Shown here: in pieces, positions 21,828 to 39,023 of the stretch
How the letters are laid out: each line of letters opens with the position of its first letter
How positions within the stretch are numbered: the first letter of the stretch is position 1
Assembly (NCBI GenBank): GCA_026014485.1
Contig: JAOZIE010000012.1
Coordinates: 163,594 to 216,185, forward strand
Direction of reading: 5' to 3'
Origin: Candidatus Bathyarchaeota archaeon
Lineage (GTDB): Archaea; Thermoproteota; Bathyarchaeia; Bathyarchaeales; Bathycorpusculaceae
DNA length: 52,592 nucleotides
The notes under the pieces: model-generated
Seen by the model: only the letters and a program-made list of their open reading frames with translations
Told to the model about the DNA's origin: nothing
Databases searched by the model: none
Program-made: the position numbers and the translations under genes

Positions 21828-21969
21828 ACACCCCACACCCCTCCCCCCATTTTCCACCAAGCCCAACTAATCCAGTCTGTTCACAAGTGTATGCTTCAGG
21901 ACAAAAGTTTCCCACATCAAAAGACAAGCCGTTTGGCAGCCGCAAAACTCACAATACAACCATTTCAAA

Positions 21970-22052
21970 CCATTCTAAACCAAAATCTGCCTTTTTCACC
22001 CTTTTCTAGACGCAACATAAACCCAAAACAGGTTCTGAAACAAAAAAGCAAC
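21970..22052 (-). repeat. 83-bp dispersed intergenic element, copy A
   Basis: Read on the minus strand from 22052 to 21970 it aligns without gaps to the plus strand at 38894-38976, differing at about 8 of 83 positions by eye. The first ~58 bp (GTTGCTTTTTTGTTTCAGAA... to ...TCTAGAAAAGGGT) differ at only two positions. It lies just downstream of cobY. Partial extra copy: ACCCAAAACAG is repeated at 22021 and 22051 (plus strand). Confidence 0.75.
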
Positions 22053-22119
22053 CCAAAACAGACGCTGACAAAAAGCGGGGGAGGTACAAACCGCACACAA
22101 GCATCTGACAAACGCTGCA

Positions 22120-22743
22120 TCAGGGTTTTTGTGTAGAAAACTTGGGGAACTGTTCTTTTGCAATGCGCAGTTCGTCTACTGTGTTTATGTTCACGGCGAC
22201 TTCTGCTTTGTCTAAAACGTAGATTTCCTGTTCCAGTTCTGCATCGTCAATTCGGCTTCCGTCGTTAACGTTTATTCCAGCGTAGACTACGCGTTTTCCT
22301 TGGTGCTCAAAAGTGTAGCCGCCGATAAAACCGAGTTTTTCGCGTGTTTCTTGGGGAACCGTAACTGCCAAAGCGGCTTTCCCGCAGAGTTGGTAGCGCT
22401 CCAAAATGTCGTCGACAACTGCGCCGGTTAAAAGCGGTAAGTCAGCGGCCACAGCCAAAACCGTTTCTAGTCCAAGCGTCTTAACTGCGTAACCCATGTC
22501 GGAAACGTACTCTTTTCCAGGGGTCATAAGCACCTTCACAGGTAAAGCCGCTAAATGCTGTGCAGTTTTAGGAGTATTACGGCTGACCGCGACCACCACG
22601 GAATCTACGCGTTTCGCATCATGTAAAGCGGATAGCACCAGGTCAACGAGGGATTTGCCGCCGACGCGTAGAAGCGGTTTCTCCTCTGTCAAAGCCAAAC
22701 GCGTGCCTTTCCCGCCAGCCATCACAAGCGCAGTTGTGGTCAT
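22120..22743 (-). CDS. cobY: Adenosylcobinamide-phosphate guanylyltransferase (CobY)
   Basis: A 207-aa protein starting MTTTALVMAGGKGTRL at 22743. The longer open frame to 23031 overlaps cobS in another frame and is not real. The nucleotidyltransferase motif GGKGTRL (10-16) with EKPLLRVGGKSLVDLVL, AADLPLL (the metal-binding Asp) and the ...NVNDGSRIDD segment match the archaeal CobY family, which adds GMP to adenosylcobinamide phosphate before nucleotide-loop attachment. Its ATG overlaps the TAA of cobS, so the two are translationally coupled. Known archaeal counterpart of bacterial CobU. Confidence 0.88.
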   Translation of the reverse strand: MTTTALVMAGGKGTRLALTEEKPLLRVGGKSLVDLVLSALHDAKRVDSVVVAVSRNTPKTAQHLAALPVKVLMTPGKEYVSDMGYAVKTLGLETVLAVAADLPLLTGAVVDDILERYQLCGKAALAVTVPQETREKLGFIGGYTFEHQGKRVVYAGINVNDGSRIDDAELEQEIYVLDKAEVAVNINTVDELRIAKEQFPKFSTQKP

Positions 22744-23522
22744 TACAGCACCGCCAACAAAACCACAATGCAAACTGCCCTGACCAGCTCGTTGGTTGCG
22801 CCTAAAACGTCTCCGGTTACGCCGCCAAAGTGCCGATGTGCAATCACAACCATGAAAAGCCCAGCTAAAGCTGCTGCAAACACTGCTGCAAAACCAGCTA
22901 AACCCAACAGCGGCACTGCAACCGCAAACGACAACGCCAAAGCAGTTGCCAAACGTAAGCCGCCATTTTTCCCGTGCATTACATCCATAAACGGCGAGTT
23001 CATGCCTTTGTGCACGGCTTTTCCCGCCCAAGTTGCTACAACCATCGACAACTTGGCTGCGAGTTCAACCACAATTATGCCTGAAATGATTACGGGGACA
23101 CCAAGGTAACCTGCACTGAAGGTATTGCCATAGCTTGCAAGGGAAACAAATGCAAACGCGGTCGTCAAATAGGTCATGACGCCCAGTCCGATGGCACCTG
23201 CGCCTGTTAACTGGTCATGCATAACCTCGATTTTGCGTTCCGCTGAACCGTGACACATGATGGCGTCACCTAAATCCAAAAGCCCATCTGTGTGGTGCAG
23301 ACCGGTCAGAAACAGCAAGGCAGCCAACGAAAGGGCACCGACAACTAGGGGGGGAAGAACAAAATTTGTTGCCCAGCCGAAAACGCCGGCTAGTAAACCC
23401 AGAAATGCGCCGACAAGCGGAAAAAACCACATGAGCTTTGCGGAATCGGTTAAGCAGTCCATGTCCATGCTGAACGGCAGTACAGACAGAAAAGCAAAAA
23501 GATTCCGTATTTTCTTCCACAT
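22743..23522 (-). CDS. cobS: Adenosylcobinamide-GDP ribazoletransferase (CobS)
   Basis: A 259-aa membrane protein. The acidic motif HTDGLLDLGDA gives Asp79, Asp83 and Asp86, followed by ERKIEVMHDQLTGAGAIG; the C-terminal GDVLGATNELVRA is also typical. CobS joins adenosylcobinamide-GDP to alpha-ribazole (phosphate) at the membrane. About six to seven hydrophobic helices. It overlaps cobY by three bases and follows the Dph6-like gene by 6 nt. A second, altered CobS-like protein is encoded at 37980-38816. Confidence 0.9.
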   Translation of the reverse strand: MWKKIRNLFAFLSVLPFSMDMDCLTDSAKLMWFFPLVGAFLGLLAGVFGWATNFVLPPLVVGALSLAALLFLTGLHHTDGLLDLGDAIMCHGSAERKIEVMHDQLTGAGAIGLGVMTYLTTAFAFVSLASYGNTFSAGYLGVPVIISGIIVVELAAKLSMVVATWAGKAVHKGMNSPFMDVMHGKNGGLRLATALALSFAVAVPLLGLAGFAAVFAAALAGLFMVVIAHRHFGGVTGDVLGATNELVRAVCIVVLLAVL

Positions 23523-23528
23523 GGCGAC

Positions 23529-24209
23529 TTAGGCATCCTGTTTTTTCGGCTCTACCTCAAACCGCAAAATCTCTAAGCGTCCAAACCCGTTCCGCGAAGA
23601 CTTTTGGGTTTCGACAAGTTTTATGGCGCTGCTGAAAGCTGGTCCATCAGTTACTACTGTGTGGTATTCGCCGCCTTCTCCGCAGGGGTCAACGTTTCCC
23701 AGTGCAAGAACATCTGCCAAGAACTTTTGGTCTAGTTCGCGACCCAGCCACTCTTCGCCTAGCATAGACATGTTAGTGCGGACAACTGTAGCCTTGAATC
23801 CTTCCGTCGTGAACTCCTGGAAAATCCGTTTTGTGTCACCCATCCATAGCGGTCGAACAGGCTCTAAACCTACCTCGCCGCAGACACGTTCAAGCCAGCC
23901 TTCCTCGTGACCCGCCACCTCATAAATGTCGCCTGTAACCAAACCCACTGCCCCCTTCGCTTTACACTCTTTTAGGGCATCCTTGAACTGCTGCTCGTAG
24001 GTTCCAGGATTAGTGACGTTTTTTGTGATAGGCAAACCGAGGGCTTTTGCTTGGGCGTCCAGAAGGTCAGAGCGTATGGCATGGAAATTGGATGCTTTTT
24101 CGTTCTGCATAAAAGTAATCAAGCCCACAACTTCGAAACCCTGCTTTACCGCTTTGTGGTATGCAAGGCAGCTGTCTTTTCCGCCGCTCCACGCGGCAAC
24201 AACCTTCAA
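23529..24209 (-). CDS. Dph6-like ATP-pyrophosphatase amide ligase
   Basis: About 226 aa. I start at the TTG at 24209 because AAGGAGG (24218-24224 on this strand) lies 8 nt before it and the protein then begins MKVVAAWSGGKDSC, as the family does. The PP-loop SGGKDS (8-13) activates substrates by adenylation. NEKASNFHAIR, GLVTGDIYEVAGHEEGWLERVC, EWLGRELD and CGEGGEYHTVV match diphthine-ammonia ligase (MJ0570-type). In diphthamide synthesis it amidates diphthine on EF2. Here it lies inside a corrinoid transport and assembly operon (24 nt after the btuD stop, 6 nt before cobS), so a role in corrinoid amidation is an alternative. Confidence 0.82.
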   Translation of the reverse strand: MKVVAAWSGGKDSCLAYHKAVKQGFEVVGLITFMQNEKASNFHAIRSDLLDAQAKALGLPITKNVTNPGTYEQQFKDALKECKAKGAVGLVTGDIYEVAGHEEGWLERVCGEVGLEPVRPLWMGDTKRIFQEFTTEGFKATVVRTNMSMLGEEWLGRELDQKFLADVLALGNVDPCGEGGEYHTVVTDGPAFSSAIKLVETQKSSRNGFGRLEILRFEVEPKKQDA

Positions 24210-24217
24210 TGTTGCAT

Positions 24218-24224
24218 CCTCCTT
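24218..24224 (-). promoter_or_regulatory. Strong ribosome binding site deciding the Dph6-like start
   Basis: AAGGAGG on the minus strand, 8 nt before the TTG at 24209. An upstream TTG (24230) lies before this site and is unlikely to be used. Confidence 0.6.
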
Positions 24225-24230
24225 ATTCAA

Positions 24231-25586
24231 TTATGCATTTTCAACCTTGTTTGTTATATCATTTTCCGTGGAGTCATCCTTTTCTTTCAGTTGCTCAACG
24301 GCGCCTTGTTTCCCGCAGCCCTCTTTTGCTTTCTGTTCAGAAACATTCAGCAGATGTAAAAGCGCTTCTTGACCATTCACAAAAACGGCGCCTAACTTTT
24401 TCAGTTCAGAAAACAGCGTCTTCGCTTTTCCGCCCGTGAAATCCCTGATTTCGATAGGCACCTCATCAAGCACATACGTTGCGATGCCTGCCTTTAACGC
24501 CTCTTTTGCCGCCTCCAAATTCTGCAGGTTCCCCGAACCGAACGGAACCGAAGCTAAAACCACGATGCTTGCTTTGCGTATCATTTCCAAGTTGGCTTTT
24601 TGGGCTTTTTCAGTAACTGGAGAAAACGGCGCCTCACTAACCACTGGAATCTTTAGGTACTGCGCTGTTGAGAAGTCCGTGTCCAACACGTTCAAAACGC
24701 CTGCGGTCACGTTGTAGCCTGAGTCAGTTAGGATTTTCATAAGTGTGCTACCTGTTCCAGCTCCAGAAATCAGGTGAACAGAAAGGCTTCTTTGCCGTTG
24801 GTCTTTAGGCTTAGAAACGGGGATAACAAAGGGCAAATCAGTGACGGGGTGCTTGTTTACGATGACGTTTATTCCAAAGACGTTTCGGATGTTCTCACAG
24901 GTTAAAGTTTCTGACGCTTTTCCTGCAGCCACGATTTTGCCGTCTTTTAGCATAATGATTGAATCGCAGTAGCGAGCAGCCAGATTGAAGTCGTGGAACA
25001 CCCCCACAATCAGCAGTTTCTTTTCGACACAGAGTTGCTTGAGTAAATCCATAATCTCAAGCTGATTACTTATGTCCAGATGGCTTGTGGGTTCATCCAG
25101 CAACAGGATTTTCGGCTGCTGAGTCAAAGCCCGCGCAATTATGACCCGCTGCCGCTCGCCACCGCTCAGTTCAGTGATTAATCTGTTGGCAAGATGTATC
25201 GTTCCTGTGTACTCCATGGCTTGCTTGGCTATGGCTATGTCTTTGGCGCCTTCTGAAGCTAACCTAGCCAAATGGGGAGTGCGCCCCATCAGAACGATGT
25301 CGAAGGATTTGAAGCTGAAGGTGATGTTGCTGTCCTGCGGAACCACAGCCATGCTTTTTGCGACATCTGTGTTTTTCATGCTGTAAATGTCGGAGTTATC
25401 GAGAACTATGGTGCCTTTGCGGGGTTTCAGCACTCTGCTGATGCTTTTTAGCAAAGTTGTTTTTCCTGAGCCGTTTGGACCCAGAATGCCCAGAAAAGTA
25501 CCGGTTTCCACGGAGAAGCAAACGTCTTCCAGAATCTTTGCTGAATCGTAGTAGCAGGCTACGTTTTCAATTTTCAGATTTACCAT
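24231..25586 (-). CDS. btuD: Corrinoid ABC transporter ATP-binding protein with extra C-terminal domain (BtuD)
   Basis: A 451-aa protein. The ABC ATPase spans residues 1-250: Walker A GPNGSGKTT (36-44), signature LSGGERQ (140-146), Walker B LLLDEPTS (161-168) and a switch His in GVFHDFNLA. It is of the iron-siderophore/B12 type. A further ~160-residue domain (about 267-420; LSVHLISGAGTGSTLMKIL...) has a Rossmann-like pattern with LNVLDTDFSTAQYL and YVLDEVPIEIRDF, followed by a charged tail. Longer BtuD proteins with such a tail are known in other archaea; its job is unclear. Energises import through BtuC. Confidence 0.88.
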   Translation of the reverse strand: MVNLKIENVACYYDSAKILEDVCFSVETGTFLGILGPNGSGKTTLLKSISRVLKPRKGTIVLDNSDIYSMKNTDVAKSMAVVPQDSNITFSFKSFDIVLMGRTPHLARLASEGAKDIAIAKQAMEYTGTIHLANRLITELSGGERQRVIIARALTQQPKILLLDEPTSHLDISNQLEIMDLLKQLCVEKKLLIVGVFHDFNLAARYCDSIIMLKDGKIVAAGKASETLTCENIRNVFGINVIVNKHPVTDLPFVIPVSKPKDQRQRSLSVHLISGAGTGSTLMKILTDSGYNVTAGVLNVLDTDFSTAQYLKIPVVSEAPFSPVTEKAQKANLEMIRKASIVVLASVPFGSGNLQNLEAAKEALKAGIATYVLDEVPIEIRDFTGGKAKTLFSELKKLGAVFVNGQEALLHLLNVSEQKAKEGCGKQGAVEQLKEKDDSTENDITNKVENA

Positions 25587-25597
25587 GTTTTACGTCC

Positions 25598-26680
25598 TCA
25601 GAATACATCCACTCGTTTCTTTTTGCGAAGCAGGAACAGGAAGAAGGTTACTCCTGAAAGAACAGTTATTACGCCAACAGGCACCTCGCTGGGCATTGAA
25701 ATAATCCTTGCTAAACCATCACACAGTACAAGGAAAGAGGCGCCCATAAGAATGGATGCTGGAAGTAACACCCGATGGTCAGGACCAACCAGCAGCCTAG
25801 TCATGTGTGGAATCATTAAGCCTATGAAGCCTATTAGTCCGCTTATGGAAACTGCTGCAGCAGTCATTAAGGCACCGGACATTAAAAGAATAAACTTTAC
25901 GCGCTCGGTATTGACGCCTAGATGCTGAGCTTGGTCTTCGCCTAGTGCAATTATGTTTAGGTCACGAGAGTACAGGAAAGTAACCGCAACACCAAGAAGT
26001 ACAAAAGGCAAAATACTAAACATCCCCGACCACGTAATGCGGGAAGAGCTTAAGCTGCCTATTATCCAGAATGTCAGGTCACCAAGCTTGTCACCTGCAA
26101 TTGACTGAAGATAGGTTATAATCGCCAACTCAAAAAGCCCCACGGCTATTCCTGAAAGCAGCAAAGTAGTCATCGGAACCTTTGAACCAACTCTAGAAAT
26201 TGCATAAACCACTAGCACCGAGATGATGCAGCCGATGAAAGCCGCCACAGGCAATGCGTTTGCGCCCAAAGCTGATGAGCCGATGCCTAAAACAATTGCT
26301 AATGCGGCACCCAGCGCAGCGCCTTGTGATGCACCTACAACGAAGGGGTCAGCCATGGGGTTACGGAACATCCCTTGAAATACGGTACCTGAAGCGGCTA
26401 ACGCTGCCCCGACAAGCGCGCCTGTTAGAATTCGAGGCAGCCTAACCAGCGTTATTATTGCTTCTTTGTTGGCTTGGAAGTCGGTTAGCTGAATGTAGTT
26501 CCCTATGCCAGGTATATTTTTCAGCAGAATCTGGGTTATATCCTGAAATGGAATTTGACTGAAACCGAAGTTGAGAGACAAAAAGACGCAGCCAATGAAA
26601 AGCAGAATTAGCAAACCAAAATGCCTTCGCCATTTGGAAGACCGCGTAATTTGAGGGGGCTTACTGCTGCCTGTCTGCAA
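25598..26680 (-). CDS. btuC: Corrinoid ABC transporter permease (BtuC, FecCD family)
   Basis: A 360-aa protein with about ten membrane helices. FecCD/BtuC family phrases are clear: RLPRILTGALVGAALAASGTVFQGMFRNPMADPFVVGASQGAALGA compresses to the RLPR, FQ..FRNP.ADP and G.S.GA motifs; GLIGFIGLMIPHMTRLLVGPDHR and PSEVPVGVITVLSG are the C-terminal signatures. It carries corrinoids (or a siderophore) through the membrane. Gene order btuF-btuC-btuD with gaps of 41 and 11 nt, followed by cobS and cobY, points to corrinoid rather than iron uptake. Confidence 0.9.
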   Translation of the reverse strand: MQTGSSKPPQITRSSKWRRHFGLLILLFIGCVFLSLNFGFSQIPFQDITQILLKNIPGIGNYIQLTDFQANKEAIITLVRLPRILTGALVGAALAASGTVFQGMFRNPMADPFVVGASQGAALGAALAIVLGIGSSALGANALPVAAFIGCIISVLVVYAISRVGSKVPMTTLLLSGIAVGLFELAIITYLQSIAGDKLGDLTFWIIGSLSSSRITWSGMFSILPFVLLGVAVTFLYSRDLNIIALGEDQAQHLGVNTERVKFILLMSGALMTAAAVSISGLIGFIGLMIPHMTRLLVGPDHRVLLPASILMGASFLVLCDGLARIISMPSEVPVGVITVLSGVTFFLFLLRKKKRVDVF

Positions 26681-26721
26681 ACTTTTGCTCTCCGATGCGC
26701 AAGATAAAGAAAAGGGGATAT

Positions 26722-27717
26722 TTATGTTGGATTGATGTATTCCCCGAATATCTCAGGGTGAATTATCTTTGCCAATGCCTCTAAAGCGTCCACTTGCCTT
26801 GGTCCAGGTTGGTTTATGGCGTCTGCGTTTACAACGTAAAGCTTCTGGTTCTTGATTGCACTTATACTGCTCCAGCCCGGTCTGTTTGACACATCATCAA
26901 AGCTTCCCCAGAAAGCTGTTGGACCCATGTCACTGGGGAAAACTATAACATCAGGGTTCAGTTCGATAACCGATTCAGAATAGACAATTGGATACGGTTC
27001 CGTTGCATTTTCGAAAATGTTCTGCCCACCTGCAAGTGCGATTAAGCCGTCTATGAATGTGCCGCTGCCAACACTCATGTATGGGTCGCTGAAGATTTCA
27101 TTGTAAACTTTTGGTCGAGTCGTGGCGCCTTCGACACCGGCAACTACCGCGTCTATCCTCTGCTGAAGGCTACTCACCAGCGCTTGAGCATCCGCGGCGT
27201 GGTTCGTGGCGTTCCCAACTAGCTGTATGTTTCTGAGGATACCAAAGATGTCAGGAGGATTCAAAGTTAACACGTTGTAACCCAAGCTTCTCAACTGAAT
27301 TGCGCAGTCGTCACTTCCGAGGGCGGCAACGACCAAATCAGGGTTAAGTTCAACAATGGGCTCAACAGTTGGATTAAAGTAGCTTCCGATACTGGACATG
27401 TTACCTGCCTCTACCCAAGCAGAGAAATCGTATGGATAATTGTCGTAATCGGTTACGCCAACAACTTTGTCTCCTGCGCCAACTGCAAACAATATCTGTG
27501 TGTTAGCGGGAGCCAAAGAAACTATCCTCTCAGGGTACTCTGTAAGAGTCAAAGTATAGCCGCTGTCGTCAGTCAAATCTAGCGACATCGGCGAGCCAGA
27601 GGGACTCGGAGACGGACTGCCTTCAGGTCCAGGATAAAGCGAAACAACAGCCACGGAAGAAACCGCTATAACAACGATGGCTGCCACAACTATGAGGTAC
27701 AAAGTATTCTTTTTCAT
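26722..27717 (-). CDS. btuF: Corrinoid-binding protein of the ABC transporter (BtuF)
   Basis: A 331-aa protein. N-terminal signal anchor (LYLIVVAAIVVIAVSSVAVVS) and a SPSPSPSG linker lead into a class III periplasmic-binding fold: YPERIVSLAPANTQILFAVGAGDKVVGVTDYDNYP, VEPIVELNPDLVVA and SVIELNPDVIVFP. It captures the corrinoid outside the cell and delivers it to BtuC. Promoter: TTTATATTTT around 27762-27772 on the minus strand. First gene of the btuFCD-dph6-like-cobS-cobY operon. Confidence 0.88.
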   Translation of the reverse strand: MKKNTLYLIVVAAIVVIAVSSVAVVSLYPGPEGSPSPSPSGSPMSLDLTDDSGYTLTLTEYPERIVSLAPANTQILFAVGAGDKVVGVTDYDNYPYDFSAWVEAGNMSSIGSYFNPTVEPIVELNPDLVVAALGSDDCAIQLRSLGYNVLTLNPPDIFGILRNIQLVGNATNHAADAQALVSSLQQRIDAVVAGVEGATTRPKVYNEIFSDPYMSVGSGTFIDGLIALAGGQNIFENATEPYPIVYSESVIELNPDVIVFPSDMGPTAFWGSFDDVSNRPGWSSISAIKNQKLYVVNADAINQPGPRQVDALEALAKIIHPEIFGEYINPT

Positions 27718-27876
27718 TTTACAAACCCATATCAGTTGGATTATCCAGCCGATAATGAAAATATAAACATTCCTAAAACAACAAGAGAATTTGCACTTCC
27801 CGTCCTGATGATGCGTTTTGGGGGTTGAGCGCGTAAGGCTTATGAAAAACCCTGCTGTAAGAAGGATGGATTAAAC

Positions 27877-28377
27877 ATGAACTCTAATTCAACTGCCCCA
27901 CAGCCGCCGCTGCTAAAGTTCCTTGAAGAGCACGGCGTGACGCTAAATGACCTCATAGATGCAACGCTTGAGTTTTACGTTCCCCATCCAGGCGTGGAAA
28001 CAAAAGAAAAGGCCATCCAGATACTTACAGAAGAGTTTCTTGATGTGCTTTGGGACGTGAACATATCCACTTTGGTGGCGGGCGCTTTTCTTATGCAAAA
28101 AGAAGCTGAAGCAGAACGAATCCCGGGGCTTTCAAAGAAACGGTTCGAGGGCAGACCAGGCTTGGTTGCTGACGAACTCATCGGGATGGCAATAGCATCC
28201 TACATTGCAGGTTCAAGAGGCGTGTTTGAGTTCACACGGTTTGACCAAGCTAAACCAGGCATTTTGAAGCGGCTTGGAGCAATAACCAACGACGCCATCG
28301 GCGGATTAGTTGCAGGCGTCTCTTCGAACATGTACACTAAAGCCACCAAGAAGGCGGGAAGTCAAGCGCTGTTTTAG
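27877..28377 (+). CDS. cobZ: Alpha-ribazole-5'-phosphate phosphatase-like protein (CobZ, PgpA-related)
   Basis: A 166-aa protein. The C-terminal part matches the PgpA fold signature: VADELIGMA (Asp99, Glu100), FTRFDQAKPG (Arg121, Asp123, Lys126, Pro127) and NDAIGGLVAG (Asn138, Asp139). Archaeal CobZ proteins are PgpA relatives that remove the phosphate left after nucleotide-loop assembly. The N-terminal part (LEEHGVTLNDLIDATLEFY...) fits this group. It is divergent from btuF across a 159-nt gap, which strongly favours CobZ over a phosphatidylglycerophosphatase. Confidence 0.78.
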   Translation: MNSNSTAPQPPLLKFLEEHGVTLNDLIDATLEFYVPHPGVETKEKAIQILTEEFLDVLWDVNISTLVAGAFLMQKEAEAERIPGLSKKRFEGRPGLVADELIGMAIASYIAGSRGVFEFTRFDQAKPGILKRLGAITNDAIGGLVAGVSSNMYTKATKKAGSQALF

Positions 28378-28380
28378 AGG

Positions 28381-28611
28381 TTATTCAACCAACATAAGCG
28401 TGGTTATAGTGTAGACTCCGCTTAGCCCCCAAATAGACAGGGTAATTATTTCTTTGAGTTTATCTACGGAGGTTGCTTTAACTTTGAGGGCTAAGTTGTA
28501 AACGCTGTAAACCGCATGTGCCTCTTCAACGCCTTCGACACGTTTGAGGCGCTCCAAAATTTTTGCTTGGTCACCTAAATCTGTGTTAACTAGAAGTACT
28601 GCAGAAACCAA
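28381..28611 (-). CDS. Stand-alone Lrp/AsnC ligand-binding (RAM) domain protein
   Basis: A 76-aa protein. TTG at 28611, with GGAGG 8 nt upstream. It is only the RAM domain of Lrp/AsnC regulators: VSAVLLVNTDLGDQAKILERLKRVEGVEEAHAVYSVYNLALKV..., the beta-alpha-beta pattern with GVEEAHAVYSVYN at the dimer edge. No DNA-binding domain. Such proteins bind amino acids or modulate full Lrp proteins. Convergent with cobZ (3-nt gap). Confidence 0.75.
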   Translation of the reverse strand: MVSAVLLVNTDLGDQAKILERLKRVEGVEEAHAVYSVYNLALKVKATSVDKLKEIITLSIWGLSGVYTITTLMLVE

Positions 28612-28814
28612 AAAGTCATCCTCCGAGGTTAGGCATCTATGTTTCAGAAAATGTAGTTAAGCATATGTTGTCGCAAAATGTAACTACAGGTCATAAAAGA
28701 TTGCATCAGCAACAGAGGGGAGTTATCTTTATAGGCGTAACCTGTCGGAACACGGCAGCCACCATAAGATTCTAATACTTTCCTTGGTGAGAAAAATGTG
28801 CAGCGCGGGACACC

Positions 28815-29972
28815 ATGGCACCGACCAAATTGTGCATCGTCACCCACACATTTCTGCCTCATGTGGGCGGAATCGAAAGAGTGGTTTACGAGCAAAGCAA
28901 GCTTCTTATAAAGAAGCGTTTTGAACTGGTGGTGCTTACCCACAAAAACTTCACTCCCAGCCACTACGTTTACGACGGCATAAATGTTCGGTGCTACGAC
29001 GCCATGAACCTTGGATTCAGGCTTGGAATCCCCTACCCCATCCCAAAAGTCACCAGTTGCAAGCCCTTCTTGGAGGTAATCAAGTCCAGCGAGGTCATTC
29101 ACGCGCATGGGCACCCATACTTGTCTTCTCTTGCTGCAGCGAAGCTGGCAAAGAGGTATGGGAAACCGTTTGTGTTAACTCAGCACAACACTTTCATAGA
29201 ATACAATAGCATTTGGGATAACGTTGAAAAAATAAATGACTGCGCCATAGGAAAACAAAATTTGAAAGAAGCAAAAAAGATTATTGCCGTCAGCAACGCC
29301 ACCAAAGACTACGTTTTGCGTTTGGGGGCTGACCCCGATAAGGTGGAGGTGATTCATAACGGTGTTGATTTAGAAAGGTTCAAGCTTATAGCTGGCGCGG
29401 GAGCTGCAGTGAGAGAGAAGCTGGGTATCCCAAAAGATGCAGTCGTCGTCGCCACCGTCCGCAGGCTCGTCTACAAAAACGGCATAGATACGCTTCTGGA
29501 AAGCGCAAAAATCACGGTTCAGAAGAACCCGCAGTTAGTTTACCTGATTATCGGTAAAGGACCAGACTTTGACGATGTGAAAGCGCGGGTTGGACAGTTG
29601 GGGCTGGAGAAGAACTTCCTGCTGGCAGGCTTCGTGTCTGACGAGGATTTGCCGAGTTTCTACAACGCCGCAGATTTCTTTGTTGTGCCCAGTAAATCCG
29701 GCGAAGGCCTGCCTCTTGTGACGCTTGAGGCGATGGCTTGTGGGCTACCTGTTTTAGCAACTGATGTGGGAGGCATAAAAGAAGTGATGATTAAGGGCTA
29801 CGGCAAAGTGATTCCTCCCAATGACCCTCAAGCGATGGCTGAAGGAATGCTGGAGTTGGCAGGCATCGAATTCACCAGACTTAAGCGGGAACTCCGCAAA
29901 ATCATGACGAAAAAGTACAGTTGGAACACAAATGTGGAAAGGTTAGTGAAGATTTATGAGGAAATTATTTAA
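28815..29972 (+). CDS. GT4-type glycosyltransferase
   Basis: A 385-aa GT-B protein. N-terminal HTFLPHVGGIERVVYEQSK and HAHGHPYLSSLAAAKLAKRYGKPFVLTQHN; C-terminal VIHNGVDLERF, ATVRRLVYKNGIDTLLESAK and KSGEGLPLVTLEAMACGLPVLATDVGG, the EX7E-type donor-binding motif of retaining GT4 enzymes. TATA near 28728-28734. It precedes a GT2 gene by 51 nt, so both may act in surface glycan or glycolipid synthesis. Acceptor unknown. Confidence 0.88.
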   Translation: MAPTKLCIVTHTFLPHVGGIERVVYEQSKLLIKKRFELVVLTHKNFTPSHYVYDGINVRCYDAMNLGFRLGIPYPIPKVTSCKPFLEVIKSSEVIHAHGHPYLSSLAAAKLAKRYGKPFVLTQHNTFIEYNSIWDNVEKINDCAIGKQNLKEAKKIIAVSNATKDYVLRLGADPDKVEVIHNGVDLERFKLIAGAGAAVREKLGIPKDAVVVATVRRLVYKNGIDTLLESAKITVQKNPQLVYLIIGKGPDFDDVKARVGQLGLEKNFLLAGFVSDEDLPSFYNAADFFVVPSKSGEGLPLVTLEAMACGLPVLATDVGGIKEVMIKGYGKVIPPNDPQAMAEGMLELAGIEFTRLKRELRKIMTKKYSWNTNVERLVKIYEEII

Positions 29973-30023
29973 ACCCTGCAGAAATTATATTAGACGCCTA
30001 TATATGAGGACGCAGGGTGCCCC

Positions 30024-30704
30024 ATGACATCAAAAGTAGAGATGGTTTCGGTAGTAATCCCAACGTTAAATGAAGCCGGAAACATCCGCGAGGCTTTGGA
30101 CACGCTTGATAGGGAACTTATTTTTCCTAATGAAATTATTGTGGTAGATGGTAACTCCACTGATGGAACCATCGAAATCGTCAAGGATTCTAAGGCGCGG
30201 CTTATAATTGAGCCACGGCGGGGTTACGGGTTAGCTCTCCGAGTAGGAATGAAAGCCGCCAAAGGCAACGTGGTCGTCATGGTCGACGGCGACGGCACAT
30301 ACGAGTTCAAGCACATTAACCGGTTAGTTCAGGGAATGGTTGACAACGACGCGGAGATGTGTTTGGCGACCCGCATGTATGACCCCAACAAGGCGATGGG
30401 GTTGTTCAACTTCGTCGGGAACAAGCTAATCACGTTCTGCTTCAACATGCTCTACAAGCAGAACTTCAGCGATACCCAATCAGGTTTTCGGGCGATTTCA
30501 CATTCTGCCTTAGAAAAGGTGAATTTCAAGGAAACCGACATGCCTTTTGCCACTGAAATGCTCATCAAGTTTTCCAAAAAACGGTTTAAGATTGTTGAGG
30601 TTCATTCGACGTACAAATTCAGAAGGTACGGTAAAACTAAACTTAAGCCCTTTAATTCAGGCATAGAAATCTTAGCCACTATACTTAAGGGGCTGAGAAG
30701 TTGA
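30024..30704 (+). CDS. GT2 glycosyltransferase, dolichol-phosphate sugar synthase-like
   Basis: A 226-aa GT-A protein. VSVVIPTLNEAGNIREAL, EIIVVDGNSTDGT, GYGLALRVGMKAAKGNVVVMVDGDGTYE (metal-binding DGD) and NFSDTQSGFRAISHSALEK match dolichol-phosphate mannose/glucose synthase-like enzymes, which load a sugar on a lipid phosphate. No C-terminal membrane helices are present, so it is the soluble type. Follows the GT4 gene; next gene starts 15 nt later. Confidence 0.88.
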   Translation: MTSKVEMVSVVIPTLNEAGNIREALDTLDRELIFPNEIIVVDGNSTDGTIEIVKDSKARLIIEPRRGYGLALRVGMKAAKGNVVVMVDGDGTYEFKHINRLVQGMVDNDAEMCLATRMYDPNKAMGLFNFVGNKLITFCFNMLYKQNFSDTQSGFRAISHSALEKVNFKETDMPFATEMLIKFSKKRFKIVEVHSTYKFRRYGKTKLKPFNSGIEILATILKGLRS

Positions 30705-30719
30705 GGGCCTCTGGTTAGC

Positions 30720-31244
30720 ATGGAAAAGGTAAGTGGAAACCTGAACGGGAAAAGTAGTCAAAGCGTTTTTGTTGTGTCAGTGGCTATTGCGATTGTGCTG
30801 GCTTCGGTTCTTCTGGGAACCTATTATGTTGCGCTTAGACCCGCGGGTAGTGAGTATGCAACTATTTATCTGCTTGACAGTCATCAGCGGGGAACGGATT
30901 ATCCGGAATTTCTGGTTGCCGACGTGAACAGCACCTTCAGCGTTTACGTTGTAGTAGAGAACCATATGGGATACACTTTGAACGGCACGCAGGTTCAAGT
31001 GAAGGCGGTTAACAGCAACAGCGTTAATCTTGAGTTTCCCCTTGACGTTAACGCCACTCAGACCTTTGAGGGAACAGTGGATGAGGGCAAAACATGGGAG
31101 AGCATCGCAACCGTGACGTTAAATCAGCCCGGCAACTATCTGGTTGGTTTTGAGCTTTGGCTTCCAGACGGGGCAACGGGTGAGCGGGCGTTTTCGGGTG
31201 AAGTCTGCGTTTTGAACATTGAGGTTGCTACGGGAACTCCGTAG
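30720..31244 (+). CDS. DUF1616-like membrane-anchored protein
   Basis: A 174-aa protein. One N-terminal membrane helix (VFVVSVAIAIVLASVLLGTYYVAL), then an extracellular beta-rich domain: ATIYLLDSHQRGTDYPEFLVADVNSTFSVYVVVENHMGYTLNGTQVQVKAV. The phrase pattern (xIYLLD..G...DYP..L..) matches the C-terminal domain of DUF1616 proteins, which often accompany archaeal glycosyltransferases. Five N-X-S/T sequons suggest glycosylation. Tightly linked to the preceding GT2 gene. Confidence 0.65.
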   Translation: MEKVSGNLNGKSSQSVFVVSVAIAIVLASVLLGTYYVALRPAGSEYATIYLLDSHQRGTDYPEFLVADVNSTFSVYVVVENHMGYTLNGTQVQVKAVNSNSVNLEFPLDVNATQTFEGTVDEGKTWESIATVTLNQPGNYLVGFELWLPDGATGERAFSGEVCVLNIEVATGTP

Positions 31245-31373
31245 CCTAATTTAGGATGGCTGCCGCGATAAATTTTATATTGTTTTTTGTTTGTTTTTCT
31301 GACAGGGAAGTTGAGGATTAAAGCTGAATGGTCAGTTTCCGCTTTCTGATGTATTGGAGGATAAATCGGGTTA

Positions 31374-32735
31374 ATGGGTAAAATAGAAAACGGACTGGGT
31401 AAGGCACCAAGCAGCAGCCCCGAAAAAGTAGCAGCCCAAAAATTCATGTCGCGCTTTCTCGGACCTGCAAACAGTTCAGGCTGGGTTAACGCGGTTTTAC
31501 CCTTTAACATTGCTTTGGGACCTGTAAGCACTTTGATTCCGCTGTTGATTTTGAACCTCAACGGAAGCGTAGTGGAAGTTGGTTTAGCGCTTACCCTGTT
31601 TAATGCTGTGGGTATCCCAGCGGCTCTATTTTGGGGTTTCATAACGGACCGTTTCCATCGGCGGCGTCCTCTGGTTCTGGTCAGTTTTCTGGTTACCGCG
31701 CTGATTCTGGCGCTGTTTCCGTTTGCGAGAACAGGTTACTGGGTTTCTTTTCTGTACGCCCTGTTTTCTTTCTCGACCACCGCCTCGACTACGCCGCTTA
31801 ACCTTCTGGTCATGGAAACGGAGCAGAAACCTAGGTGGGCTTCAGCGTTTGCCAAGTTCTCCATGTTTTCCAGTGTCGGACAGACAGTGGGGTTGCTTTT
31901 GGGGATGGTTTGGTCAGTTTACGCGCCTTTGGTTTATTTGGTGATTCCTTTAGCTGTTTCGTCGTTGGTTTCCGCAGGTTTGGCTGCTTTCATGATTAAA
32001 GAGCCAGAGGTTGTTTTTGAACGGAAAGCTATGGTTATGCATAAGCACAGTTTTTTTCACAGACTCCGCCACTCGCCTTACCTGTTCCTGAAAGTCCCAA
32101 GCGGAAACGACTTTAAACGCATGTTCAGGAACCTACGCCACGAGTTTACGAGACATACGCCGCTGCTTTATATGGCTATTTTTGGTTTCTTCTTGTCCGC
32201 AGGAATCTTCAACACTTCACTGATTCCCGCTTTAAAACTCCAAGGCGTATCCAGCTTGCTGATTTTCTGTGTCATAATGCTGGGGCTGGTTGTCCAGATA
32301 GTCTCCTTCAGGTTTGCGGGACCATACACTGAGCGGAAATCGCCCGTGAAAAGCGCCATCGGCGGATTGCTGCTCAGAGCCGTCGCCTACGGCATGCTGG
32401 GTGTTTGCGCCTACTTCCTGACGGGGCTGTGGTTTCTGCTGCCGGTCATGATTTGTTACCCGCTGGCTTCTGGACTTGCATACTCGATTTACTACACCGC
32501 TTCAAACACCATGGTCTTCAACACACTAAGCCCTCGACGAAACGGCTCCGCTTTGGGCGTGTACAGCGCCTTGGCTGGGTTTGCAACGATGGCGGGCTCG
32601 TTTGTTTCGGGCTTCTTGTCCTTCTACGGGGGTTTTTATGTAACCTTCATAGTTTCTGCCGCATGCTTAGTGGTCTCGGCGTGGCTACTGACGCATCTAG
32701 AGGTTTTAATGATACCCAATCAGCCACAAAGATAG
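31374..32735 (+). CDS. MFS transporter
   Basis: A 453-aa protein with about twelve membrane helices and the MFS loop motif GFITDRFHRRRPL between helices 2 and 3. A polar loop of about 50 residues (HKHSFFHRLRHSPYLFLKVPSGNDFKRMFRNLRHEFTRHT) separates the two halves. ATG at 31374 preceded by GGAGG at 15 nt. Substrate unknown. Not clearly in an operon; the next gene has its own promoter region. Confidence 0.82.
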   Translation: MGKIENGLGKAPSSSPEKVAAQKFMSRFLGPANSSGWVNAVLPFNIALGPVSTLIPLLILNLNGSVVEVGLALTLFNAVGIPAALFWGFITDRFHRRRPLVLVSFLVTALILALFPFARTGYWVSFLYALFSFSTTASTTPLNLLVMETEQKPRWASAFAKFSMFSSVGQTVGLLLGMVWSVYAPLVYLVIPLAVSSLVSAGLAAFMIKEPEVVFERKAMVMHKHSFFHRLRHSPYLFLKVPSGNDFKRMFRNLRHEFTRHTPLLYMAIFGFFLSAGIFNTSLIPALKLQGVSSLLIFCVIMLGLVVQIVSFRFAGPYTERKSPVKSAIGGLLLRAVAYGMLGVCAYFLTGLWFLLPVMICYPLASGLAYSIYYTASNTMVFNTLSPRRNGSALGVYSALAGFATMAGSFVSGFLSFYGGFYVTFIVSAACLVVSAWLLTHLEVLMIPNQPQR

Positions 32736-32823
32736 AAAGCTACTTTTCGTGTCCGTGAAGTGTCAAGAATCGCATGTACAAAGGCACCGAAAAGGCTACT
32801 CAAAATCTTGTCGCATCACATCA

Positions 32824-32843
32824 TGATTAAACATGTTTAATCA
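32824..32843. promoter_or_regulatory. 20-bp perfect palindrome, probable operator of the ECF S gene
   Basis: TGATTAAACATGTTTAATCA is fully self-complementary. It lies about 20 nt upstream of a TATA-like AATTTTTATG and 70-90 nt before the ECF gene, the expected place for a regulator site. Confidence 0.6.
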
Positions 32844-32912
32844 GTTCATAGGAAATTTTTATGTAGAGTAAAGATTCTAAGAACCAAAAACCGTTCAACA
32901 AGTGTGCAGAAC

Positions 32913-33749
32913 ATGAAAAAAGAATCTTGGCGACAACCATATTCACTTATCATTGTAGCAATGGCAGTCAATGCGGCACTGTATGCTGCAGGATCCTACC
33001 TCACCGCTTATATTCCCTCACCGTGGGGGATAGGTCAATTCCGACCAGCAGTTGTGGTTCCCGCGTTCTTCTCGGTTATTTTTGGTCCGTGGGCTGGCGG
33101 CGTCGGCGCCGCGTTGGGCACTTTGATTGTGGATTCTGCTAAGCATGGAGGAATCTATCCTGGAAGCTTACTTGCAGCGGTTCCAGGCAACTTCATCGGC
33201 TTTTTCGTCTTTGGCTACCTCCTACGTAAGAAGTTCAATTGGGCTAGATTCATCACAGTAACCAATGTAGCCTTGATTCTTGCTAACGTCATCGTGGCGT
33301 TTCTTTACGTGTTCACCTACAAGCTGCTATACATGCAATCTTCAGCCTTTACTCAAATGTCAGCGGAGGCCTTGATTGTGCTATCGTTAGGACTCACCGT
33401 ATTCTGGTTCGTCACGATGCTGCCATTTGTGCTCCTCATTGTGCCCGCATTAGTAGCAGTAACCGCCAAGGCGTTTCCATCGATAGTACCCGAAGAGGTC
33501 AGAATCAACGGCATGAAACGTCTCCCCAAGCGCCTGCTGGGTGCATCAATGATAGTTCCAGGCATAGCCATGATTGCAATTGGGCTCACGGTAACCTTCG
33601 CATCCCTCAGCAGTTACCTACCAACAAACTTAGCCGCAAGCTACTTCCCAGCAGCCACCCTCACCCTAATCCAAATACTACTATATGCAGGCGGCGCTAC
33701 CCTGACAGCTTTGGGAAGCATATTCATCGTCAAAAAAAGCACACACTAA
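32913..33749 (+). CDS. ECF transporter S component-like membrane protein
   Basis: About 278 aa from the ATG at 32913 (a GTG at 32904 is in frame). About six to seven helices. The YSLIIVAMAVNAALYAAGSYLTAYIP, VVVPAFFSVIFGPWAGGVGAALGTLIVD and SLLAAVPGNFIGFFVFGYLL stretches match substrate-binding S components of energy-coupling factor vitamin transporters. The C-terminal ~90 residues extend beyond the usual core and include extra helices. No A or T component is adjacent. Substrate unknown; the upstream palindrome (32824-32843) suggests ligand-responsive control. Confidence 0.68.
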   Translation: MKKESWRQPYSLIIVAMAVNAALYAAGSYLTAYIPSPWGIGQFRPAVVVPAFFSVIFGPWAGGVGAALGTLIVDSAKHGGIYPGSLLAAVPGNFIGFFVFGYLLRKKFNWARFITVTNVALILANVIVAFLYVFTYKLLYMQSSAFTQMSAEALIVLSLGLTVFWFVTMLPFVLLIVPALVAVTAKAFPSIVPEEVRINGMKRLPKRLLGASMIVPGIAMIAIGLTVTFASLSSYLPTNLAASYFPAATLTLIQILLYAGGATLTALGSIFIVKKSTH

Positions 33750-33957
33750 ATAGGACAAATACAGGCAGGGTTCTTGTTCTGTGTTAAAAGGTGTAAGAAG
33801 CCACGGAGTGGTTTTCCTTTTTTACACACTTTACAAGTTTCAGAAAAACGCGGCGTGTTTGCTATACTTCCGATTGAGTAAAAAGCCAAACAGGAATTTT
33901 TGAGTTCAATACAAAATTAGATATAGGGTGAGGTAACAAATAAGGAAGGGAACCTCA

Positions 33958-34467
33958 TTGGGCACAAACGGGCTAATTAAAATAGATGGATATTACGTCG
34001 AAAGTGTGGAAACATGTCGTAGAGCGCTGTTGAAGTATTATACGTCTCAGGCAATGACGCGTAGTGGATACCTTGTAACAACAGCTATTGCAACCATTAC
34101 ATTAGTTTCAAGCAGGGGAGCCTTCCCGCAGACTACAATCGGGTTGATAACTTTTGCTTTGCTGTTGAGTGCGTTATTAACTGCTGGCGTCTATATTTTG
34201 TTGCGAACGTTGTACTGGGGTTGTTTATCCCATCTAATCATTATTACGAAATTAACTGGATATTATAGTGACAGCACTTTAATGGCAAATCTTCAGTGGA
34301 AAACAATTGAAAAAATGCAAGAGGCAAAAAAAGAAAAGGGTACACCTGCATATTGGTACAAACTGGTTTATTTTTTGAACAAACATATTAGATTAAGCAC
34401 AACCTTATTTTTGTTCAGCATTCTCTCGTTGGGCTTGTATTTTTCCTTATTATTGTTCCGAATGTAG
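33958..34467 (+). CDS. Hypothetical membrane protein
   Basis: A 169-aa protein from a TTG at 33958 (GGAAGGG upstream). Four hydrophobic stretches (about 40-55, 60-82, 88-100 and 140-165) around a charged segment (KTIEKMQEAKKEKG). No family was recognised. The coding region is more AT-rich than its neighbours, and the codon use looks different, which may reflect recent acquisition. The N-terminal soluble part (LIKIDGYYVESVETCRRALLKYY) has no known motif. Confidence 0.6.
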   Translation: MGTNGLIKIDGYYVESVETCRRALLKYYTSQAMTRSGYLVTTAIATITLVSSRGAFPQTTIGLITFALLLSALLTAGVYILLRTLYWGCLSHLIIITKLTGYYSDSTLMANLQWKTIEKMQEAKKEKGTPAYWYKLVYFLNKHIRLSTTLFLFSILSLGLYFSLLLFRM

Positions 34468-34641
34468 GCAGTGTTTTCTGCTATTTCTCCATTTAAACAG
34501 CCGCGGAGAAAATGCTAATGCTCATACTTGTGAAACAGGTTACTGTAAAGACGTTTCACAAACTTATCTTTGTATGAATGCATAGGATGTCGCAGGCAAC
34601 CTTTCCTGAATGACGAGGGGAGAGGGGGTTGTAGAAGAAAA

Positions 34642-34660
34642 AATAGCTTCATCAGCTATT
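34642..34660 (-). other. Hairpin at the end of the Tes-like gene
   Basis: AATAGCT-TCATC-AGCTATT is a perfect 7-bp stem that overlaps the stop codon of the minus-strand gene. It may stabilise or end the transcript. Confidence 0.35.
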
Positions 34661-36119
34661 TAGCGCTTTTCTGTGCATAGGTTTCTTCAGTATCGATTCG
34701 GTGGATGTTGTTGTAGGCGCAGAACGGGATAACCTTCAAGTTCGGAGTAACATAGTGCACCACACACCGCTGCACACGATTCACGTCGAAAGTGTATGGA
34801 TCCATGAAAGCCATGCAGCCCAAAAGGAAAATCCGCCGTCTGATGGGACCCAGCGACTGGTAACTTGGAGAAACAAACATCTTCAAGATAGCTTTCATCA
34901 ACGTGAAGATGCCAACTTCTTTAGTTACCAACAGCATATTCATTGAAAGCATAGACGACATAAACAACGTTGCAAGCAAAGAAAACTTGCCTTGATCTTT
35001 TGCGTTCTGAGCTGTTTTTTGAATACCTTTGAAGAACTTGCCGAAGTTTACGAAATGGTTAATCGGAATCATTTTGCCGCTTTTGGAAACATACACCCAA
35101 TTCACGATACCGCAGTGGGGGCTACAGGAGAAAAGCGGCCAAGGCTTCTTCATGAACTTGCGCATGATTTTTATGGGGGAAGTCATCACGGAAAGCGGAA
35201 ACATATCCGACGTTTTGACTTCGCCGTCTGTTTGGGATTCCACTTGTTCCGCGAAACGCCAGTCGCGCCAAGCCTCTTGGAAGGGGTTATCCGTTGCGCG
35301 ACCAGTAAACGCGATAGGCTGGAAAATTAAGCCGCGGATGATGTCGGAGTTTGCAGCGGCGAACTTTATGATTTTGCCGACTTCCTTGTCGTTGAAGCCG
35401 TTCATTAGCGTGCAAACCAAAATTACCTCCATGTCCAGCTTGCGGCAGACGTCGATTGCTTTGTATTTGAGTTTGAGCAGTTCGCGTCCGCGGATCTTCT
35501 TGTAAAATTCGTCGCGGAAGCTGTCAAACTGTAAATAAACAATGTTTAGCCCACACTTCTTGAGTTGCGCTGCACGTTCAGGTTCCTCAGCGATGTGAAT
35601 GCCGTTAGTCGCCAAAATCGTCATGAACTTTAACTCATGTGCAGCAGCGATGATTTCATGCATGTCCTTGCGCTCCATCGGTTCCCCACCTGAAAACAGA
35701 ATCGCTGGAGGTTTTGGATTGCGCTTGCTGAGAAAAGTCAGGATGTCGATGAGTTCTTGTTTGGTGGGTTCGTAATCCACGATGTGGTCGGAGAACGTGG
35801 AGAAACAGATGGCGCAACGTAAATCGCACTCTTTGGTTACGTCGATTACGCCGATTACCGTGTCCGAAATGTGGCTTTTACAGGACGCACATACGTAGGG
35901 GCAACCCGCAGCCACCTTGTGAGTTTTGGCTTCCTCAAAGTCCTTAAAGAAGTCATACTCCTCAGTGAAGTTGTAAACTGTTGGGCTCTGCCAATGCGTA
36001 GCCTTGAAAACTCCATGTTCAGGACATTTTTTGGTGATTTGGATTTTTCCGTCTTTCACTGTCAGTTCCGCATCGATTGCCTTTTGACATTCAGGACAGA
36101 TACTCTTGGTTTTTTGCAT
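34656..36119 (-). CDS. Tetraether lipid synthase (Tes)-like radical SAM protein
   Basis: A 487-aa protein starting MQKTKSICPECQKA at 36119; the frame to 36158 overlaps the UbiA gene and is not used. The layout matches the Tes/MJ0619 group: a zinc-ribbon-like start (Cys8, Cys11, Cys32), the CPYVCASC cluster (Cys73, 77, 80), then the radical SAM motif CDLRCAIC (Cys98, 102, 105) and GGEP (144-147), plus a long Cys-containing C-terminus. Tes couples two archaeol chains into membrane-spanning tetraethers. It starts 1 nt after the stop of the DGGGP-synthase-like gene, which supports a lipid role. Paralogs of unknown function exist in this family. Confidence 0.7.
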   Translation of the reverse strand: MQKTKSICPECQKAIDAELTVKDGKIQITKKCPEHGVFKATHWQSPTVYNFTEEYDFFKDFEEAKTHKVAAGCPYVCASCKSHISDTVIGVIDVTKECDLRCAICFSTFSDHIVDYEPTKQELIDILTFLSKRNPKPPAILFSGGEPMERKDMHEIIAAAHELKFMTILATNGIHIAEEPERAAQLKKCGLNIVYLQFDSFRDEFYKKIRGRELLKLKYKAIDVCRKLDMEVILVCTLMNGFNDKEVGKIIKFAAANSDIIRGLIFQPIAFTGRATDNPFQEAWRDWRFAEQVESQTDGEVKTSDMFPLSVMTSPIKIMRKFMKKPWPLFSCSPHCGIVNWVYVSKSGKMIPINHFVNFGKFFKGIQKTAQNAKDQGKFSLLATLFMSSMLSMNMLLVTKEVGIFTLMKAILKMFVSPSYQSLGPIRRRIFLLGCMAFMDPYTFDVNRVQRCVVHYVTPNLKVIPFCAYNNIHRIDTEETYAQKSAK

Positions 36120-36120
36120 G

Positions 36121-37931: not shown

Positions 37932-37979
37932 GAAGCTCACGGATAAAGCTATATCCTAAATGGACTTTTGATAGGGTAT

Positions 37980-38816: not shown

Positions 38817-38856
38817 ACATGTAAAACAGTAATTCTGAGCGATTCGTTTTTTCTGC

Positions 38857-38868
38857 GGGGTATACCCC
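38857..38868. promoter_or_regulatory. GGGGTATACCCC palindrome
   Basis: A perfect 12-bp palindrome 40 nt after the CobS-like stop. Could be an operator or part of a termination structure. Confidence 0.3.
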
Positions 38869-38873
38869 CCGTT

Positions 38874-38904
38874 TTCTGCAGGCGCTGCAGAACGTTGCTT
38901 TTTT
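38874..38904 (+). terminator. Hairpin plus T-run after the CobS-like gene
   Basis: TTCTGCAG-GCG-CTGCAGAA is an 8-bp perfect stem with a 3-nt loop, followed by CGTTGC and six T. It looks like an intrinsic terminator, which is unusual in archaea, where T-runs alone suffice. Confidence 0.45.
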
Positions 38905-38976
38905 GTTTCAGAACCCGTTTTGGGTTTATGTTGCGTCTAGAAAAGGGTCAAAACGGTTGAATCTGGTTCAGAATGG
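38894..38976 (+). repeat. 83-bp dispersed intergenic element, copy B
   Basis: Aligns without gaps to the minus strand at 22052-21970 (about 8 differences in 83). The first ~58 bp are nearly identical, and conservation fades toward the end. Both copies lie downstream of genes of the cobS family. A TTG frame crosses the copy here but is broken by TGA in copy A, so conservation is not protein-driven. Confidence 0.75.
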
Positions 38977-39023
38977 CGCAAGTTTCTTAAAGTCGCAGGT
39001 ATGCATTCAGTTCGAGGGATTAT

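What the first reader, a model, noticed from the sequence alone, without database searches (positions are those of the whole stretch)
21970..22052. 83-bp intergenic element present twice in opposite orientation, each time downstream of a cobS-family unit
Seen: the minus strand at 22052-21970 and the plus strand at 38894-38976 match at about 75 of 83 positions without gaps; the first ~58 bp differ at only two. Both lie 3' of cobS/cobY and of the second CobS-like gene. Copy A has a stop in the frame that is open in copy B, so conservation is at the nucleic-acid level. It could be a miniature mobile element, a shared 3' RNA element, or a scar of a duplication that also produced the two cobS genes.
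Basis: seen in the sequence. Interest (0 to 1): 0.6.

Follow-up and report, generated by a model that had tools for sequence, protein, structure and literature searches.

The report
Genome-wide phased A-tract intergenic element, Bathyarchaeia
The 83-bp match is two of about 37 copies of an undescribed, roughly 118-bp DNA element that sits between genes all over this uncultured archaeon's chromosome, carries a tail of A-tracts spaced one helical turn apart, has nothing special to do with vitamin B12 genes, and coincides unusually often with places where related chromosomes have been rearranged.

Summary
In detail: window 21966-22085 (-) and 38863-38980 (+) are two copies of one element (the 83 bp match at 90%). 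The cobS link fails. The same genome (a Bathyarchaeia archaeon) has 37 copies at E<1e-6, almost all intergenic, next to unrelated genes and in every orientation to them. Copies have a sequence-specific head (C-rich tract, TTTTCTGC, TGCTTTTTT, GGGTTT) and a tail of A/T tetrads followed by GG every 10 bp. The tetrads switch freely between AAAA, AATT and TTTT, yet TpA steps occur in 5 of 331 against about 48% background. RNAalifold finds no pairs. Selection therefore appears to act on DNA shape. Congeners have 14-42 copies; a sister family has an extended version with a variable decamer array. Copies often stand at orthologous sites, and gene order breaks across them far more often than across comparable element-free boundaries. 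Neighbouring inverted copies, such as the window pair, are unusually often closest relatives (10 of 37; 1.6 expected). Best reading: an oriented, curved-DNA chromosomal element, probably a nucleoid- or histone-binding site, that is also a recombination hotspot. Main rival: a MITE-like or BOX-like mobile repeat. The binding partner is unknown.

The parts
21966..22085 (-). copy A of the element (head at 22085, A-tract tail towards 21966)
   Evidence: R1 model match C7:185559-185678(-), E 1.7e-25 (window = C7:163594-216185)
38863..38980 (+). copy B of the element (head at 38863, A-tract tail towards 38980)
   Evidence: R1 model match C7:202456-202573(+), E 3e-26
22053..22085 (-). copy A, C-rich tract plus TTTT-CTG block (element positions about -33 to -1)
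   Evidence: column conservation
22034..22052 (-). copy A, G(T/C)TGCTTTTTTGNTTC-G core (positions 1-18), mostly invariant in this genome
21970..22005 (-). copy A, phased A-tract tail: A/T tetrads at 48-51, 58-61, 68-71, 78-81, each followed by GG, 10-bp period
38863..38893 (+). copy B, C-rich tract plus TTTTCTGC block
38894..38912 (+). copy B, GTTGCTTTTTTGTTTCAG core
38941..38976 (+). copy B, phased A-tract tail
22086..38862 (.). 16.8-kb interval enclosed by the head-to-head (-/+) pair; holds both CobS genes and other genes. Not part of the element itself, but the segment a recombination between the copies would invert
   Evidence: geometry; head-to-head excess among close pairs

Best explanation
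What it is: an oriented, non-coding intergenic DNA element family with about 37 copies in this Bathyarchaeia genome. It has a sequence-specific head and a tail of A-tracts in helical phase (10 bp), i.e. expected to be intrinsically curved DNA with a regular narrow minor groove. SHOWN: copy number, intergenic placement, lack of RNA structure, lack of indels, A-tract constraint, decamer turnover, species-specific consensus, persistence at orthologous sites, and coincidence with synteny breaks. INFERRED: the head is read by a sequence-specific protein and the curved tail is wrapped or bent by a nucleoid protein; the histone of this order is a candidate. The element would act as a chromosome-organising or boundary site, as its close head-to-head pairs and somewhat even spacing would suit. 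Recombination between copies (inversions between inverted neighbours, exchange of flanks, conversion tracts) homogenises them within a species and makes them rearrangement points. The two window copies are one such head-to-head pair 16.9 kb apart; their position 3' of two cobS genes is coincidental.
For: 37 copies at E<1e-6 in the own genome. 33 of 37 show no net indel over ~118 bp although copies average ~59-61% identity. RNAalifold: 0 pairs on 27 and on 68 sequences. At five tetrad positions 331 all-A/T tetramers contain TpA in 5 cases (1.5%) against 44-49% background, and column shuffles of the own-genome copies give p<=0.0255 in every window. GG and AA/TT period about 10 bp in most species. 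114 of 116 copies do not overlap predicted genes; orientation to genes mixed 36/30/28/20. Copies at orthologous sites with the same orientation in other species, yet orthologous copies are no more alike than random cross-species pairs, while copies within several species are more alike. Gene-order junction kept across the element 28/93, against 38/55 at element-free non-operonic boundaries and 36/38 within operons. G029/G050: both flanks of L245 are found in G050, each beside a different copy. Closest paralog is the chromosomal neighbour in 10/37 (1.6 expected); the reciprocal neighbour pairs are all inverted. Exact 195-bp shared block starting inside two G005 copies 392 kb apart. Histone family present in own genome and nearly all relatives. 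Archaeal nucleosomes favour 10-bp AA/TT repeats offset from GG/CC (PMC3691661).
Against: No binding protein is identified. Histones occur equally in relatives without the element, including congener G004, so histone alone does not explain it. The same paper says A/T-only pentamers are excluded from archaeal nucleosomes, which fits the TTTTTT run badly. A simple wedge-model curvature is clearly above shuffles only in G6, G3 and the 4 copies of G1 (mean z 0.8-1.1), marginal in this genome (0.22) and absent in G5 and G2. Distribution is patchy. Spacing regularity is weak (P 0.026) and the head-to-head and alternation tests were made after looking. Copies in a genome are related, so the counts are not independent.
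Confidence: 0.45

Rival explanations
1. A non-autonomous mobile repeat of the MITE or BOX kind: a modular ~118-bp (extended in G029/G050) element spread by a transposase in trans, with an internal tandem array, now scattered in intergenic DNA where it is tolerated; rearrangements follow from homologous recombination between copies.
For: Patchy distribution: multi-copy in a few genomes, absent or single in many. Species-specific homogeneity. Variable array length and right-truncated copies in G029. In G050 a copy joins at its 5' end to an HTH gene that is intact in G029. Sharply bounded pairs such as L096/L097 whose identity starts near -25 and ends near +83.
Against: I saw no terminal inverted repeats or target duplications. 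Copies persist at orthologous sites between species whose intergenic DNA is otherwise too diverged to follow, with few indels and with TpA-free A-tracts, which decaying insertions would lose. No clean empty-site/filled-site pair was found in two attempts. No transposase was looked for by family search.
Confidence: 0.33
2. A site-specific recombination system: the elements are crossover sites for a recombinase that inverts segments between head-to-head pairs.
For: Flank exchange at copies, closest paralogs are often inverted neighbours, excess of head-to-head close pairs, 14 against 2.
Against: No inverted core or recombinase found. Conversion tracts extend past the element (195 bp exact block), as homologous recombination would give. 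Crossover points were not mapped to one spot.
Confidence: 0.08
3. A transcription terminator or insulator between transcription units: TTTTTT and the T-rich head end transcripts, the tail blocks read-through.
For: T6 run and pyrimidine-rich left flank; the copies lie between transcription units; the window copies lie 35-46 bp after stop codons.
Against: Half of the copies face the 5' end of the upstream gene (30 divergent, 28 reversed tandem). The T-run is one small part of a long conserved element, and the tail GG positions are as conserved as the T-run.
Confidence: 0.08
4. A family of small non-coding RNA genes.
For: Independent of gene orientation, dispersed, long conserved block.
Against: Zero consensus pairs in two alignments, no Rfam match in the window over the copies, A to T switches of whole tetrads without partner changes, no archaeal TATA box recognised in the alignments.
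Confidence: 0.03

Closest known systems
BOX elements of Streptococcus pneumoniae (from memory)
   Same: short intergenic modular repeat with a left module, a variable number of internal tandem units and a right module; many copies, both orientations
   Different: archaeal; the unit is a 10-bp helical-phase A-tract decamer, the right module is seen only in G029/G050; no RNA fold
Prokaryotic MITEs, including the P. gingivalis MITE with an internal minisatellite (PMC4596501, abstract only)
   Same: short dispersed non-coding repeat, patchy distribution, internal tandem array
   Different: no terminal inverted repeats or target duplications seen; kept at orthologous sites with DNA-shape constraint and few indels
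Phased A-tract curved DNA and 10-bp nucleosome-favouring repeats such as kinetoplast bent DNA or (TATAAACGCC)n (from memory); archaeal nucleosome code (PMC3691661)
   Same: A/T tracts and G/C dinucleotides alternating with a 10-bp period
   Different: here it is the tail of an oriented element with a sequence-specific head; occupancy is unknown; GG follows the tetrad centre by about 3-4 bp instead of exactly half a turn
REP/BIME elements of enterobacteria (from memory)
   Same: intergenic, many copies, protein-binding, linked to chromosome architecture
   Different: REP units are palindromic and form hairpins; this element is not palindromic

Membership tests
MITE / non-autonomous transposon | terminal inverted repeats | tested here: not met
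   ends of aligned copies compared by eye; only a 10-bp GACCCCCCTA / TAGGGGGGTC similarity in G029, not seen in this genome
MITE / non-autonomous transposon | target-site duplications and empty sites | tested here: inconclusive
   no duplication seen by eye; L259 and L252 sites compared between G029 and G050 gave breaks or variant elements, no clean empty site
MITE / non-autonomous transposon | related autonomous element with transposase | not tested
   no transposase family search was made; genes between close head-to-head pairs are housekeeping genes
BOX-like modular repeat | left module, variable tandem units, right module | tested here: inconclusive
   met in G029/G050 and partly in G6 (variable decamers), but no right module in this genome
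Structured RNA element (riboswitch, 3' UTR element) | conserved base pairing | tested here: not met
   RNAalifold 0 pairs with 27 and 68 sequences; no Rfam hit over the copies
Structured RNA element (riboswitch, 3' UTR element) | fixed orientation to the gene it regulates | tested here: not met
   36/30/28/20
Intrinsically curved DNA (phased A-tracts) | TpA-free A/T runs of about 4 in helical phase | tested here: met
   5 of 331 with TpA, period about 10 bp
Intrinsically curved DNA (phased A-tracts) | measured curvature or anomalous gel mobility | not testable with these tools
   dinucleotide wedge model gives support in G6, G3 and G1 only
Histone / nucleoid-protein positioning site | in vivo occupancy | not testable with these tools
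   histone gene present; no occupancy data for an uncultured archaeon
Cobalamin-linked element | association with cobalamin genes across copies | tested here: not met
   37 copies beside unrelated genes

The most novel reading that the evidence does not exclude
A dedicated chromosome-organising site of Bathyarchaeia: an oriented, curved-DNA anchor read by an unknown protein, arranged in head-to-head pairs and spaced along the chromosome, whose specificity co-evolves within each species (own consensus and own decamer), and whose recombination drives gene-order evolution.
Probability: 0.25. Interest if true: 0.85.

Novelty: new variant of a known kind. Interest (0 to 1): 0.62.

Why it matters
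Chromosome organisation and gene-order change in Bathyarchaeia, abundant uncultured archaea, are little known. A repeated, oriented element with a clear DNA-shape signature that coincides with synteny breakpoints gives a concrete place to look for a nucleoid or architectural protein and for the cause of rearrangements. The three literature searches aimed at it found no description. It also shows that two alike intergenic sequences near paralogous genes can be a genome-wide element with no link to those genes.

Tried and rejected
Cobalamin link and cobS duplication scar: rejected. RNA structure: rejected. Upstream hairpin: a stem-loop just left of the C-rich tract is present in perhaps a third of copies, with different sequences, and absent in many; no control was run and it was left open. 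Composite transposon between the recurrent 2.6-2.8-kb head-to-head pairs: rejected, they enclose pgk-gapdh, thiL and other housekeeping genes. Terminator tied to the upstream gene: rejected by orientation. Pattern scans of public collections: in genomes only two Bathyarchaeota isolates (DYS_1, palsa_989) stand out among scattered bacterial matches that look like chance; the three viral-contig matches were not examined. G152 and G252 (genus g12) have 13-23 copies but 6-9% contamination, so they may hold contigs of the element-bearing genus; they were given no weight. Clean empty sites: two attempts, none found. Literature: three searches aimed at this element found no description; a search for archaeal histone positioning and one for prokaryotic MITEs supplied the comparisons.

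Full report
OBSERVATION. The two 83-bp stretches are there and match as described. The conserved unit is longer: 21966-22085 on the minus strand and 38863-38980 on the plus strand. The window is C7:163594-216185 of a 2.37-Mb, 26-contig genome.

GENOME-WIDE FAMILY. A sequence-only model of 27 copies finds 37 copies at E<1e-6 in the own genome. Aligned copies show a C-rich tract and TTTTCTGC block (-33 to -14), an almost invariant GYTGCTTTTTTGNTTC.G core (1-18), WWWWGGG-TT (25-34), TTGCGTC (38-44), and then A/T tetrads followed by GG at 52, 62, 72 and 82, i.e. every 10 bp. There is no net indel in 33 of 37 copies over about 118 bp, although copies are only about 60% identical on average.

DNA, NOT RNA OR PROTEIN. 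RNAalifold predicts no pair in 27 copies or in 68 copies from six species aligned without gaps. The six-species set was extracted gap-free, so its lack of gaps is partly built in. Copy A has a stop in the frame open in copy B. 114 of 116 copies do not overlap predicted genes in sequence that is 70-82% coding, and all four orientations to the flanking genes occur (36/30/28/20). My gene calls come from a simple hexamer-based caller, not a standard annotator.

DNA SHAPE IS CONSTRAINED. At the tetrad positions 25, 48, 58, 68 and 78 the sequence switches between AAAA, AAAT, AATT, ATTT and TTTT from copy to copy, but a TpA step, which breaks an A-tract, appears in 5 of 331 all-A/T tetramers in five species, against 44-49% of such tetramers in the surrounding DNA. 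Shuffling columns among own-genome copies never or rarely reproduces this. This is the strongest evidence of function: gene conversion alone would copy one sequence, not keep a shape while the sequence varies. A dinucleotide wedge model shows clear extra curvature only in G6, G3 and G1.

OTHER SPECIES. In the genus, G001, G002, G003, G005 and G006 have 14-42 matches; G004 has none. In the order the element is patchy. Two genomes of another family, G029 and G050, carry an extended version: CTCTCTC-TAGACCCCCC-TATAATTTTTT, GTTGGTTTTTTGAAAATAAGCTTGAAAACGGTTTATCCCACG, a decamer array, and a right module ending in CCTTAACCGCAGGTTCCCCTACCTAGGGGG. The decamer is largely species-typical: NNRAAAAGGC in G006, GTTAAAATGG in G003, GATANNAAAA in G029, GGTTGNAAAA in G050. 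At an orthologous site beside a ribosomal protein S12 gene (identified by reading the flanking sequence), flanks are 95-97% identical between G029 and G050 but the array differs in unit and number.

SITES PERSIST, SEQUENCES ARE HOMOGENISED WITHIN SPECIES. Many copies stand at orthologous sites in several species, usually in the same orientation. Orthologous copies are no more alike than random cross-species pairs, while within-species similarity is higher (0.69 in G6, 0.66 in G3, 0.61 in G0, against about 0.53-0.60 between species). G5 is an exception, with 0.56 within.

REARRANGEMENT. Gene order is kept across the element in 28 of 93 comparisons, against 38 of 55 at element-free non-operonic boundaries and 36 of 38 within operons. 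These comparisons share loci and are not independent. Several copies have an upstream side matching one copy and a downstream side matching another copy of a different genome, e.g. G3:L222 and L225 against G0:L104, and L222/L225 are the most alike pair in their genome (0.90). Between the close pair G029/G050 I tested a prediction: the right flank of G029 L245, missing beside its left flank in G050, should lie beside another copy. It does, at G050 C27, next to the copy at 24619-24736. The far side of that copy joins, at the element's 5' end, a truncated gene that is intact and element-free in G029, so not every junction is a simple exchange between two copies. A second case, L252, has its flanks on two G050 contigs, each near a variant element lacking the array.

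THE WINDOW PAIR. Among own-genome copies the closest relative is the chromosomal neighbour in 10 of 37 cases (1.6 expected, no permutation of 5000 reached it); the reciprocal neighbour pairs are all in inverted orientation. Copy A's closest relative is copy B. Close pairs (<25 kb) are head-to-head in 14 of 23 and tail-to-tail in 2, a test made after seeing the pattern. The window copies are one such pair, 16.9 kb apart, so their likeness follows a genome-wide tendency and needs no cobS duplication; the CobS proteins are 37% identical.

HOW IT PROBABLY WORKS. Inferred: the head is a specific protein site and the phased tail a bending or wrapping platform for a nucleoid protein. A histone gene is present in this genome and in 38 of the 41 genomes surveyed, but also in those without the element, so histone can at most be the generic partner. 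Archaeal nucleosomes prefer 10-bp AA/TT repeats offset from GG/CC but exclude A/T-only pentamers (PMC3691661), which fits the tail better than the T6 core. Recombination between copies would then be a consequence of repeated sequence, homogenising them and shaping gene order. The main rival, a mobile repeat, explains the patchiness and some junctions better, but not the shape constraint and site persistence; both may be true, with an old mobile repeat now kept for its shape.

LIMITS. Relatives are draft or single genomes without names; several tests are post hoc; no transcript, occupancy or strain-level data exist here; no transposase search was made.

Noticed in passing
L245-L261 (G029/G050): extended version of the element with variable decamer array and a right module; some copies are truncated on the right, L250/L258 carry a second partial left module upstream
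   Followed up: partly
L284 and L286 (G050 C31 and C22): variant elements with tandem left modules (TCTCTCTCTTATAGACCCCCCTATA...CCCCCTAATTTTTTTATGGTTTCG) directly joined to the right-end hairpin, lacking the decamer array
   Followed up: no
L196, element near 4001-4118 and beyond: G006 copy with a long near-perfect tandem run of the decamer TAGAAAAGGC extending past the aligned element
   Followed up: no
G005 C1, last 14 strong copies from 999843 to 2645618: strict strand alternation of successive copies (post hoc P about 6e-4, weaker if weak hits are added)
   Followed up: partly
L091, L109, L134, L209: head-to-head element pairs 2.6-2.8 kb apart enclosing housekeeping genes such as pgk-gapdh, an OB-fold protein or thiL, in several species
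   Followed up: partly
L134 (rc) and L135, G005 C1:2441185 and 2049815: exact 195-bp identical block starting inside the element and running about 100 bp past it, 392 kb apart in inverted orientation: a very recent conversion or duplication
   Followed up: partly
window 22743-23468 (-) and 37980-38816 (+): two CobS paralogs, 37% identical, about 15 kb apart
   Followed up: partly
window 52476-52592 (-): 3' end of an archaeal 23S rRNA gene at the window edge (and contig end)
   Followed up: no
about 35-60 bp upstream of the core in perhaps a third of own-genome copies: a short stem-loop of varying sequence just left of the C-rich tract, absent in many copies
   Followed up: partly
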